Assembly: GCA_024180945.1 (NCBI GenBank)
Contig: JAKSGN010000007.1
Span: forward strand, 682,001 to 746,000
DNA: 64,000 nt
Direction: 5' to 3'
Source: Macrophomina tecta
Taxonomy: Eukaryota; Ascomycota; Dothideomycetes; Botryosphaeriales; Botryosphaeriaceae
In this document: piece by piece, positions 6,073-19,081 of the stretch
How positions within the stretch are numbered: position 1 is the first letter of the stretch
How the letters are laid out: each line of letters starts with the position of its first letter
Notes under the pieces: model-generated
Seen by the model: only the letters and a program-made list of their open reading frames with translations
Database searches by the model: none
What the model was told of the DNA's origin: nothing
Position numbers and translations under genes: made by a program

Positions 6073-6294
6073 CTATGTAACTATATCCGTATTCACTGTC
6101 CCAAGTCTTACGAAGGACAGATTCCCATGCTGCCATTCCCACTCAACTAGTTTTTCTCCTTCCACAGCATATACTCTACCACCAGCAGATGCTACAATAG
6201 TCGAAAGGTTGAAATCAGATGAAAACGCCGATGCAGCAGCACTGTTGTTGGAGAAATTTGTGGTCGAGAAGTTCGAATCCCACACCCTAACGCC
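6073..6294 (-). pseudogene. lectin-like gene block 3: C-terminus
   Basis: From the other copy of ctaacgcc (6287-6294) the frame continues (VRVWDSNFSTTN...) to the stop at 6073 (...LGTVNTDIVT). Upstream the same frame runs on into the hAT end, so an open frame of 136 codons crosses the junction. Confidence 0.85.
6287..6294 (+). repeat. hAT target-site duplication, left copy
   Basis: The sequence ctaacgcc directly abuts the left inverted repeat and is identical to 9155-9162. Confidence 0.95.
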
Positions 6295-9154
6295 CAGGGT
6301 GGCAATCAATTCAATCAACGTCAATATCGGGTCCAGATTGATTGATTGATAGGATTTTCCAATAAGGTCAAATTGATTGATCAATAAGGTGTTGATATTG
6401 ATTGAATTGAATTGATTGACACACGGTTCACGTAGCAAAATCTCGTGATGCTTGGCATAGTGTTGAGATTGATAGCCATACAATCTAGCTAACTCTTGCT
6501 AGCTATAGCTACTCCCGCGTGTATAGAGTCCTCAACTTCTTTCAATGATGCCTTCTGCGTTCCATGAGCGTAGTATCTGCCCAACTGCTATAGTATTGGC
6601 CTCCAGCCTATTGCGCAATGGCGTCACCATTTGTCCTGCCAAACTGAATATCCTCTCCACCTCTGCCGACATTGCCGGTATAGAAAAGAGGTCCAGAGCC
6701 ATACGTGATAGGCGGGGGTATTGCTGGCGGCGTAGTATCCAGTAATCAACTGGATTGGTGACTGCGTCATCTGTAGGAGAGGTATCGAGCTGCCAGTAGG
6801 TGTACTCATCCTCGGTCAGATCTAGATGCTTGGTCCTCCTGGAGGCAGCAAGCCAGCTGTCAAATTCGCTGAGATGTTCGCGTTTACGCTTCTGCAGTAG
6901 CTGTGGGTCCTCAGCAATAGCAATTGACTGATACTCATCCTTCCAGAGCTTTAGAACAGCTGCCTTTGCCTTCTTGATCCAGCTCTTCTTGAATGCCCAC
7001 TGATCCTCAATCCACTCCCAGCGGTAGGCAGGGTGAAGGGCGCAAGCTGCGACGTAAGCTGGAGTATCATCAAGGAGCTGATAGTACTCATCTAGCTTAG
7101 CCCACCCCAAATTGATGTTCACCTTGAAGTGAGAGTCAGGATACTGATCTGTGCGGATCTTGACCTCCTCCAGCTTGTTCAACAGGTACTCCATGCATGG
7201 AAGGACTTCCCATAAGCCGCCAAACCTACCACTAGTTGGGTTGGCTTGTAGCCTGATTGTGACTTCATGAAAAGGCTTCAAGATGGAGTGATATTCAGCA
7301 AGAGTTGCCCAATCATCTGAGGTTAGATAATCATCCACGATTGCCGGCTTGTTCTTTGTCTTAGCTGGCATTGGCTGAGTCCTACTAGCAGTGCGAGGCT
7401 TGACGTATTTATCCCATTCTTGAACTTCGTGGAGGACGAGGGCGTCAATGACTGACTGTAGCTTGATTGCGCGCTCAATCATGGCGGAGGTAGAGTTCCA
7501 TCGTGTCGCATTATCTTCTATAACCTCGTAGGTAGGGCCGTTTTCGCCAGTCAACGCTTGCTCGTTCCGCTGAAGTTGGTGCAGTCTCTGATAGACAAGG
7601 TTTGAGCGCTGAATCCAGTGGACGATATTGTGAAGCTTGCCGATAGGGCCCTTCTTGCGCCAGAGTAGGAGCTCAGCGAGTAGCTCCTTTGGCTGAGCGC
7701 AGTCGTTCTCGAACGCGTCAGCTTCCTTGCCAAAGAGGATCTGGCGGACTACCAGGTTTATGATATGGCCAATGCAGCGCAAGCGGCGGTGCTTGTGATT
7801 GAAGCCAAACTCTTCAGCTAGCGCGTCCATGCACGTGTCGTTGTTTGACGCGTTATCCGTGACAAAGTAGCCAAGTTGCCCTCCAATGCCCCATTCCATA
7901 ATTATCTGGGCTACCTCTTCCGCAAGGCTGTCACCAGTATGCCGTCCTTCGGCGTGTGGGAGGCCAATAAGGAACTTGCGAAGCGTGCCAGAGAACGTAA
8001 GGAAGAAGACGTTAATACCGAGTAGAGAGAGGTGATTACACGACGTCCAGCCGTCAAAGGCAAGGTGTATAAGGCCAGGTGAGCTCTGAAGAAGCTCAGC
8101 AACGATCCCTTTATGGCGGTTGAATTCATCAAGTAGCCATTTACGAACAGTAGAGTGTGTTGGAAGGCTGCCAGTAGACGTTACTGCAGGATTCAAATAG
8201 CTAAGAACGCGCCTGAATCTCTCGCTTTCAAGCTTGCGGAAAGGAATGTTATCGGATGAGACCCAATCAGTGAGTAGTTGCTGGAAGTACGCCGGATTGA
8301 ATGATGTGACAAGGCGATTGACAATAGCCTGCTCTGAAGGCCTATTCGTATCCAGTCCAAGCCGCTGAGCAACTGAAATCTTGGCCCGTTTGACGTGACG
8401 CTTCCCTGTAGGATCCTCAACCTTGTGCTCAGTCACCAGGTGCCTTGCCTGATTATCAGTGCCAGCAGCAGCGAAGCTAGCTGGTTTGTGGGCTTTCTTG
8501 TGCACGCAGTACATACAGACCCAGCGGGTACGCCCTTCTACGTCCTCAATGTCATATGCGTGCTCCCAAGTCCACCCGCTGCGCTGCTTTGACTCTGTGA
8601 CATGATATCCACGGAATTTCTGCCATGGGAAGTACTCCCACCCTTCGCGTACAGGTCCTCGGCCATCAACGGCAAGATTGGTGGGTTGCGCAGGATCTGA
8701 GTCCTGTTGAGAGGAAAAGAGGCTAGTGGGCGCGCTAGAGAGGCTTAAAACAGAGTGTTGATCGTTGCTAGAGTCCATCTTGATAGTGGGAGAGTTGCTG
8801 CTGAGCTGCTGAGAAAATGTAGAACGGATCTGAAAGAGCAGATTCAGCTGTCCCTTCTAGCCATTCTGAGAGAGCGTTTATATACTAGCTGCCAAGAGAA
8901 TGTGCCCGACACGTTGTGTGCCAAGAGTGTATCAGATAAAAGGCTAGCCTGACGTGGCTTGAGCGCCACAAGAGCGAGATGATCATCAAAGCTGCTTTCT
9001 ATACAAGGTAAGCCGTCAATCAATATCGTCAATCAACTGGCCCGGAGCAATTGATTGATTGACGAAAATGACAGACCTCAGTTGATTGATTGATTGCCAA
9101 GACATTGGTCAATATTGATTGACCGTCAATATTATTGAATTGATTGCCACCCTG
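6295..9154 (-). mobile_element. hAT DNA transposon, 2860 bp, apparently intact
   Basis: The ends are 21-bp inverted repeats (cagggtggcaatcaattc... at 6295; its inverse ending at 9154). They are flanked by the perfect 8-bp duplication ctaacgcc (6287-6294 and 9155-9162), the hAT hallmark. Both subterminal regions (6300-6420 and 9010-9150) are packed with TTGATTGA-type motifs in both orientations, likely transposase-binding sites. One long uninterrupted transposase gene fills the middle. No RIP-like damage is visible. The insertion splits the lectin-like gene at the codons for GGV. Confidence 0.95.
6532..8778 (-). CDS. hAT family transposase, 748 aa, full length
   Basis: The frame starts at ATG 8778 and runs to the stop at 6532 without a break. 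A BED-type zinc finger occupies about residues 48-120 (WVCMYC with a later H...H pair, RHLVTEH). The RNase H-like catalytic core follows, with the acidic sites in LAFDGWTS and FVTDNASNN. The hAT dimerisation domain near the C-terminus (about 655-735) includes PAMSAEVERIFSLAG and TPLRNRLE. Its length (700-800 residues is usual) and complete domain set suggest a functional enzyme. A bidirectional start/regulatory region probably lies in the 376 bases between ATG and the right terminus. Confidence 0.95.
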   Translation of the reverse strand: MDSSNDQHSVLSLSSAPTSLFSSQQDSDPAQPTNLAVDGRGPVREGWEYFPWQKFRGYHVTESKQRSGWTWEHAYDIEDVEGRTRWVCMYCVHKKAHKPASFAAAGTDNQARHLVTEHKVEDPTGKRHVKRAKISVAQRLGLDTNRPSEQAIVNRLVTSFNPAYFQQLLTDWVSSDNIPFRKLESERFRRVLSYLNPAVTSTGSLPTHSTVRKWLLDEFNRHKGIVAELLQSSPGLIHLAFDGWTSCNHLSLLGINVFFLTFSGTLRKFLIGLPHAEGRHTGDSLAEEVAQIIMEWGIGGQLGYFVTDNASNNDTCMDALAEEFGFNHKHRRLRCIGHIINLVVRQILFGKEADAFENDCAQPKELLAELLLWRKKGPIGKLHNIVHWIQRSNLVYQRLHQLQRNEQALTGENGPTYEVIEDNATRWNSTSAMIERAIKLQSVIDALVLHEVQEWDKYVKPRTASRTQPMPAKTKNKPAIVDDYLTSDDWATLAEYHSILKPFHEVTIRLQANPTSGRFGGLWEVLPCMEYLLNKLEEVKIRTDQYPDSHFKVNINLGWAKLDEYYQLLDDTPAYVAACALHPAYRWEWIEDQWAFKKSWIKKAKAAVLKLWKDEYQSIAIAEDPQLLQKRKREHLSEFDSWLAASRRTKHLDLTEDEYTYWQLDTSPTDDAVTNPVDYWILRRQQYPRLSRMALDLFSIPAMSAEVERIFSLAGQMVTPLRNRLEANTIAVGQILRSWNAEGIIERS

Positions 9155-9162
9155 CTAACGCC
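9155..9162 (+). repeat. hAT target-site duplication, right copy
   Basis: The sequence ctaacgcc directly abuts the right inverted repeat and is identical to 6287-6294. Confidence 0.95.
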
Positions 9163-18063: not shown

Positions 18064-18550
18064 TATAACGAGCGGGCCTCTACCTCTAAGGATCTAAATA
18101 CTAAAGAGGGAGAAAACCTATCGAGGGGGTTTTTCTTAAGTGGGTATAAGAAGAGGGTGAGAGTAAGTCGAATACGTGATGAGACTGAGTACTGCGTGCG
18201 AAGGCCGTGTTACTAATAATGTGCTGAATTGTTATTGAAGTTGACCACGAAGGTCAAAGCTATCTAAAGAGTGTGGTTTATATATACGTAGGAAAGGTCT
18301 ATAATTTGGTTTCTAATCTGTCTGCTCTGCCCTTCCGGCGGGCGGTGTCCTTGGGAGTAGACAGAGCAGCTTGCTCTGCTCTGTGTGCTCTGTGGTGTCT
18401 TGGTCCGAGCACCCTGGGAGCAGTGAGAGCACTTCCTTGGCGTCACGTGTGTCACGTGGGTGCGCGTGGGTCCTTCCGCGCCGCACCCGAGCTTTCTACT
18501 TACTACCTTATTCTGCTGTTTCTCAACCCTGTGGAGGCTGCGCCGTAACA
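18064..18550 (-). repeat. 5' LTR of the Gypsy element
   Basis: It has 487 bases. Its inner 110 bases (18064-18175) carry the T/A versions of variable sites, and its outer 370 bases mostly carry the C/G versions. The promoter of the element should lie here. Confidence 0.93.
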
Positions 18551-19081
18551 TCCACCAACGATGGCGACAATGAGAGCCATTACAGCTATGGTGGTGAGGA
18601 TTACCCAAAACCATAATCTTCGCAAGCCGCAAATTGTTCTTGTTGGTCTTGCTTGGTCCGTGGCTTCTAGTGCATATGGAACGGAGCGATCTCGGTTGAG
18701 TGCTTCAGGCTCGTTCTCGGTGTAGACCTGCGGATAGTTCTCGAGCTCGTGCATTTGTGGCAGGGAACCATCTTGAGTGAGTTCCGAATAGCTGACTTCA
18801 GGATATATTTGAGAAATGGGGCGATTGGACTCGGTAGCGCAGGGGATCTTCTGAGAGTTATGTGTGGCATGGTTATGGAGACCGAACACTACTTCGGGCA
18901 GGATATGGCCTCGGGTGAGTTCAACATAGGGCTGTTGTTGAGTCGGATCTTCTGTTGGTGATGTTTTGGTAGTGGTTGGTATCTTTTCGCAACTACGTGG
19001 GCCATCGCGCTTTGGCCGGACTTCAGTTGTGCTCGACATCTTCGGACTGTCTTTCGGAGGCACAGGAGGAGGTGAACGCAT
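18551..19081 (-). pseudogene. lectin-like gene block 1: N-terminus and membrane span
   Basis: The block reads from ATG 19081 (an internal Met at 19039, MSSTTEVRPK, is an equally good start). It ends at the codons for VGG, where the Gypsy LTR begins at 18550. The last bases, 18551-18555 (tccac), are one copy of the 5-bp target duplication. Confidence 0.85.

What the first reader, a model, noticed from the sequence alone, without database searches (positions are those of the whole stretch)
6073..19081. One lectin-like gene hit independently by a hAT and a Gypsy element, frame otherwise perfect
Three separated minus-strand blocks combine into a 513-codon reading frame without stops when both transposons, one copy of each target duplication and two introns are set aside. 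The frame is kept exactly at both insertion points. The sequence shows the ends and duplications directly; the gene's identity as a fucose-lectin-like membrane protein rests on family resemblance. A gene this short hit twice, yet free of other damage, suggests recent loss, insertion preference, or selection for losing this surface protein.
Basis: partly seen in the sequence, partly recalled or inferred. Interest (0 to 1): 0.88.

Follow-up and report, generated by a model that had tools for sequence, protein, structure and literature searches.

The report
Lectin gene broken by two transposons

Summary
Both insertions and the one-gene model are real. An intact 524-residue orthologue (Macrophomina phaseolina B0J12DRAFT_701238) runs straight through both insertion points: residue 177/178 at the Gypsy and 453/454 at the hAT. 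The claim 'free of other damage' is wrong. The window has an in-frame stop at 9389-9391, at residue 397 of the orthologue. The insertions look like separate episodes. The Gypsy bears repeat-induced point mutation (RIP): its LTRs differ by 34 transitions and no transversion, 28 of 34 before A. The hAT is recent: 29 compared copies differ from it at 0-4 of 2860 bases. The intact protein is predicted as a membrane-anchored AAL/FleA-like propeller. Most likely a dispensable family member is decaying in a transposon-rich genome; adaptive loss is neither shown nor excluded. A side observation may matter more: 12 of 63 hAT copies with both ends lack matching target duplications, and several carry each other's, as expected of hAT-mediated exchanges or of assembly switches.

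The parts
18551..19081 (-). exon 1: residues 1-177, N-terminal tail and transmembrane segment; ends with one copy of the Gypsy target duplication (18551-18555)
   Evidence: 173 of 177 residues identical to P0001; helix 155-179 in the model of P0001
10123..18550 (-). Ty3/Gypsy-type LTR retrotransposon; longest minus-strand open frame listed in its own sequence is 112 codons, so its coding capacity looks broken
   Evidence: LTRs; Tf2-type SH3 and integrase C-terminal Pfam matches at 11556-11894; ORF list with 80-codon minimum
18064..18550 (-). 5' LTR, 487 bp
10123..10609 (-). 3' LTR, 487 bp; differs from the 5' LTR by 34 transitions and 0 transversions, 28 of 34 before A
11990..14054 (.). LINE-like fragments nested in the Gypsy: two 562-bp arms in inverted orientation, 100% complementary (11990-12551 and 13493-14054)
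   Evidence: the LINE label is recalled from tail and protein type, no family match was obtained
9851..10117 (-). exon 2, first coding block: residues 178-266
   Evidence: 85 of 89 identical to P0001
9782..9850 (-). intron 1, 69 nt, GT...AG
9349..9781 (-). second coding block after intron 1: residue 267 to the first base of codon 411
   Evidence: one substitution and one stop in 145 aligned residues; borders
9389..9391 (-). in-frame stop codon at residue 397, a sense codon in the intact orthologue
   Evidence: a TGA is also flagged there by the genome search with P0001
9285..9348 (-). intron 2, 64 nt, GT...AG
   Evidence: same position and phase as in paralogue L003 (by eye)
9155..9284 (-). 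third coding block, ends with one copy of the hAT target duplication (9155-9162)
   Evidence: 35 of 42 identical to P0001, residues 412-453
6295..9154 (-). hAT DNA transposon, 2860 bp, intact ends
6532..8856 (-). open hAT transposase frame, 774 codons stop to stop, BED finger and hAT dimerisation domain
6073..6294 (-). last coding block with the second copy of the hAT target duplication (6287-6294) and the normal stop codon (6073-6075)
   Evidence: 71 of 73 identical to P0001, residues 452-524

Best explanation
This is a pseudogene of a membrane-anchored protein with a fungal fucose-lectin-type beta-propeller, in a Macrophomina genome. Shown: a Gypsy element inserted between codons 177 and 178; a hAT inserted at codon 453/454; a stop codon interrupts codon 397; a public M. 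phaseolina protein is uninterrupted. Inferred: the Gypsy came first and went through RIP, which needs a sexual cycle (recalled); the hAT came later, in a burst whose compared copies are still nearly identical. The place of the stop in this order is unknown. The gene belongs to a family with several other loci in the same genome, so its loss was probably tolerated and later lesions accumulated without selection against them.
For: Piecewise match to all 524 residues of P0001 with exact contiguity at both insertion points; exact codon count of 524; perfect 8-bp hAT duplication; LTR differences 34 transitions, 0 transversions, 28 of 34 before A, binomial P about 4e-13; 29 other hAT copies at 0-4 differences of 2860; family members elsewhere in the genome, including one open 479-codon frame at C37; AAL-like predicted fold of the intact orthologue.
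Against: No DNA of the orthologue was available, so splice sites of the intact gene are inferred from the protein and one paralogue. Gene models of relatives around intron 2 disagree: Lasiodiplodia P0004 skips the stretch and the two Diplodia models end in or near it. The RIP index alone does not separate old from young copies: a commonly repeated LTR copy and the nested fragments, near identical genome-wide, also have RIP-like indices. The 30 hAT copies compared were the best-scoring ones. That loss is tolerated is inference; the frequency of the broken allele could not be tested.
Confidence: 0.88

Rival explanations
1. Adaptive loss: a surface lectin recognised by hosts or competitors was repeatedly inactivated, and selection kept the broken alleles.
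For: Three separate lesions in the only orthologue found in this assembly; an intact version exists elsewhere in the species. PMC3477038 mentions transposon-mediated inactivation of genes whose products plants recognise (passages).
Against: Once broken, a gene collects further lesions without selection. Several paralogues are present. No frequency, host or sweep data.
Confidence: 0.08
2. The gene, undamaged apart from the two insertions, with a 100-nt intron 2 (9411-9312).
For: It gives exactly 512 residues; an automatic model of Lasiodiplodia also skips this stretch.
Against: P0001 codes through the stretch and its length is matched exactly by the short intron; P0002, P0003 and the C37 paralogue also code there; the 9 residues that the long-intron model would add share no 5-residue word with any of the 149 proteins held.
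Confidence: 0.04
3. Insertion preference: the gene is a hot spot for these elements.
For: Two unrelated elements in 1572 nt of coding sequence.
Against: The hAT duplications show only a weak nTnnnnAn tendency over 51 sites; each element family sits in many places. Whether hAT copies favour genes, or hit lectin paralogues, was not examined.
Confidence: 0.05
4. Assembly artefact: repeats joined wrongly into an intact gene.
For: Unmatched duplications at 12 of 63 hAT copies could in part be assembly switches.
Against: At this locus both elements have their own target duplications, and the gene pieces follow each other in order and orientation.
Confidence: 0.03

Closest known systems
Fungal fucose-specific lectins (AAL of Aleuria aurantia, FleA/AFL of Aspergillus, Pfam PF07938)
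   Same: AAL-type propeller fold: best Foldseek match 1iub, TM normalised by target 0.75; profile of 12 relatives matches AAL over chain residues 2-306 of 312
   Different: Here a membrane-anchored form with a long N-terminal tail; P0001 scores 23.0 bits, under the Pfam cut-off of 25.3; sugar binding untested; the window copy is broken
Transposon-inactivated genes of plant-pathogenic fungi (Pot3 in a Magnaporthe avirulence gene, a reference of PMC3477038 seen)
   Same: Gene interrupted or altered by a transposon, intact allele elsewhere in the species
   Different: Two elements plus a stop; no evidence that this protein is recognised by a plant
Fragmented pseudogenes of M. phaseolina (894 reported for strain MS6, PMC3477038, passages)
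   Same: Same kind of lesion in the same species or a close sister
   Different: Here an order of events can be proposed from RIP and copy divergence

Membership tests
hAT DNA transposon superfamily | 8-bp target duplication | tested here: met
   GGCGTTAG on both sides
hAT DNA transposon superfamily | short terminal inverted repeats | tested here: met
   21 of 21 bases
hAT DNA transposon superfamily | transposase with hAT dimerisation domain and BED finger | tested here: met
   PF05699 E 1.5e-16; PF02892 20.8 bits over a cut-off of 20.6
Ty3/Gypsy LTR retrotransposon | two LTRs bounded by TG...CA and a short target duplication | tested here: met
   487-bp LTRs, one end of each altered by a transition; 5-bp duplication with one transition
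Ty3/Gypsy LTR retrotransposon | pol order with integrase after RT and RNase H | not tested
   only an integrase C-terminal and Tf2-type SH3 match was obtained, from a 112-codon frame
Fungal fucose-specific lectin (PF07938) | score over the family's curated cut-off | tested here: not met
   P0001 23.0 bits, cut-off 25.3; of 7 family proteins scanned, P0006, P0009 and P0010 pass and P0001, P0002, P0004, P0005 do not
Fungal fucose-specific lectin (PF07938) | AAL-type propeller fold | tested here: met
   predicted model only (mean pLDDT 61.4, tail under 50); Foldseek ranks 1-16 are AAL, AOL, AofleA and AFL/FleA chains
Fungal fucose-specific lectin (PF07938) | complete fucose-binding residues in the blades | not tested
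   no site-by-site comparison was made
Repeat-induced point mutation (RIP) | transitions concentrated at CpA between duplicated copies | tested here: met
   LTR pair: 34 of 34 differences are transitions, 28 before A where 56 of 243 C sites are before A

The most novel reading that the evidence does not exclude
The lectin is under selection to be lost in some Macrophomina lineages, with separate transposon families supplying the lesions, so that intact and broken alleles segregate and track host or habitat.
Probability: 0.08. Interest if true: 0.55.

Novelty: new member of a known kind. Interest (0 to 1): 0.3.

Why it matters
It gives a small case of gene loss by successive transposon waves: an RIP-marked retrotransposon and a hAT from a recent burst in one gene. 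The recent hAT family and its exchanged target duplications may help explain the inversions and translocations already reported between M. phaseolina isolates (PMC6829926, passages).

Tried and rejected
A direct query of raw genomic translation for orthologues was turned back because of stops; a single exon piece padded with X was used instead. The excess in the window gene (18 of 523) has P 0.04 and vanishes without exon 3 (11 of 481, P 0.33; one search had used 522 and 480), so no claim of relaxed selection is made from it. RIP indices alone were rejected as an age marker because near-identical repeated copies also show high values. A literature search for a fucose-specific lectin in Macrophomina listed two papers, neither by title or abstract start about such a gene. 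The family alignment A2 used 12 of the 29 proteins found (P0003 and P0014-P0029 left out).
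Full report
What was checked. The window lies in G000:C7:682001-746000, an unnamed 54.1-Mb genome in 37 contigs. The nearest named protein to the gene is from Macrophomina phaseolina and the C37 paralogue is 443 of 449 identical to a protein of strain MS6, so the genome is M. phaseolina or a very close sister; the taxonomy lists several. Species was not tested further.

The insertions. The hAT spans 6295-9154 on the minus strand, 2860 bp, with identical 21-base inverted repeats and a perfect 8-bp target duplication. 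Its transposase frame of 774 codons is open and matches the hAT dimerisation domain and a BED finger. The LTR element spans 10123-18550 with 487-bp LTRs; the 5-bp target duplication has one transition between its copies. A Tf2-type SH3 and an integrase C-terminal match on a 112-codon frame place it with Ty3/Gypsy elements; the pol order was not examined.

One gene. A protein search with one exon piece found four proteins among 48 candidates: an intact 524-residue M. phaseolina protein (P0001), two Diplodia proteins and one of Lasiodiplodia. The five window blocks, translated and aligned apart, cover P0001 from residue 1 to 524 in order. At the Gypsy the match passes from residue 177 to 178 without gap or overlap; at the hAT residues 452-453 are found on both sides, as a target duplication demands. 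The search of the own genome with P0001 gave 24 matches; the five window blocks are 81-96% identical, all other places 48% or less, so no second copy of this gene was found in the assembly.

The hidden stop. The block 9349-9781 contains a TGA in frame at 9389-9391, residue 397 of P0001. P0001, both Diplodia proteins and the paralogue at C37, whose frame runs without intron here, code through this stretch. The shorter intron has the same position and phase as in the C32 paralogue (read by eye). The 9 residues that only the longer-intron model would add share no 5-residue word with any of the 149 proteins held. Against this: the Lasiodiplodia model skips the stretch and the Diplodia models end in or near it, which I take as automatic-annotation trouble at this intron. 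The claim that the frame is otherwise perfect is therefore rejected.

Order of events. The two LTRs differ at 34 of 487 positions, all transitions, 28 of them where the C precedes A, against 56 of 243 C sites in that context: the mark of RIP. The one change between the copies of the Gypsy target duplication is of the same type (read by eye). By contrast 29 other hAT copies differ from the window's at 0-4 of 2860 positions; one is identical. These 30 were the best-scoring of 58 scored from 565 candidates, so they are biased to similar copies; the 58 are 98-100% identical in protein, and 51 of 58 have no stop in the matched frame. Exact terminal repeats count 67 forward and 66 reverse. The hAT burst thus appears to postdate the RIP of the Gypsy. 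PMC3477038 reports that RIP was not observed in strain MS6, and 136 hAT elements (passages); a later study gives 12.92% of the MS6 genome as affected by RIP (PMC8336260, passages; the row, the table header). RIP indices by themselves were not used: a commonly repeated LTR (13 of 18 fetched copies identical, of 42 matches) and the nested fragments (40 matches scored of 74 candidates at 99-100%, two of them the window's own arms) also have high indices.

What the protein is. P0001 has a poorly predicted N-terminal part (residues 1-153 under pLDDT 50), one helix at 155-179 and a beta-rich domain (mean pLDDT 61.4). Foldseek ranks Aleuria aurantia lectin first (1iub, target-normalised TM 0.75); ranks 1-16 are AAL, AOL, AofleA and AFL/FleA chains. 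A profile of 12 relatives matches AAL over nearly its whole length (E 8.7e-9). P0001 itself stays under the Pfam cut-off for fungal fucose lectins (23.0 against 25.3 bits); 3 of 7 family proteins scanned pass it. It is best described as a membrane-anchored lectin-like propeller; fucose binding is untested, and the membrane orientation is inferred from the single helix before the propeller.

Mechanism and meaning. The simplest account is neutral decay of one member of a paralogue family after a first lesion, in a genome with recent transposon activity. The window gene has 18 substitutions in 523 distinct non-stop positions against the other isolate, 7 of them in the 42 residues of exon 3 (Fisher P 0.0002 against 11 of 481 in the rest). 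Without exon 3 it does not differ from the C37 paralogue's divergence (11 of 481 against 6 of 449, P 0.33); the two comparisons are with different strains. Exon 3 remains unexplained.

Side observation. For 65 hAT copies I compared both flanks (two further copies with only one usable end were fetched but not counted): 51 have identical 8-bp duplications, one ends at a contig end, one lacks its right end, and 12 with both ends have unmatched flanks. Among the 24 unmatched ends, six pairs match each other as expected after exchange between copies, against a random mean of 0.005 and maximum of 2 in 20000 draws. Two pairs of copies are fully reciprocal: C37:1882214/C37:1977246 (an inversion of about 95 kb) and C20:1363751/C37:554515 (two contigs); two more pairs share one end (C5, C6); four copies have no partner. 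Inversions and translocations between isolates are reported in PMC6829926 (12 of 18 passages seen). The listings of searches (15 of 21 papers; 7 of 7; 15 of 2353; 10 of 10; 10 of 32) show no title or abstract start that ascribes such breakpoints in Macrophomina to hAT copies; no paper was read whole. Assembly switches at identical repeats are the rival.

Noticed in passing
6295-9154 and about 65 other places in G000: Recent burst of one hAT family: 67 forward and 66 reverse exact terminal repeats; 51 of 58 scored copies have no stop in the matched transposase frame.
   Followed up: yes
G000 C37:1882214/C37:1977246, C20:1363751/C37:554515, C5:130874/C5:195666, C6:2802109/C6:2817092: hAT copies carrying each other's target duplications: signs of copy-to-copy exchange (inversion, translocation) or of assembly switches; 12 of 63 copies with both ends are unmatched.
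   Followed up: partly
11990-12551 and 13493-14054: Two perfectly complementary 562-bp fragments of a LINE-like element inside the Gypsy; 40 matches scored at 99-100% identity in the genome (two are these arms), several near contig ends.
   Followed up: partly
9155-9284: Exon 3 differs from the intact orthologue at 7 of 42 residues, far above the other blocks (11 of 481); cause unknown.
   Followed up: partly
G000:C27:107384-118839: A hAT copy whose two ends lie 11.5 kb apart and which holds a copy of the LINE-like fragment at 108002-108563, so it was itself invaded.
   Followed up: no
hAT copies such as G000:C3:118850-120994: A second hAT version matching only residues 1-715 of the transposase, in a 743-codon frame: 15 of 58 scored copies.
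   Followed up: no
1953-2846: Open frame of 297 codons that resembles a Tc1/mariner-type transposase (recalled, no family search).
   Followed up: no
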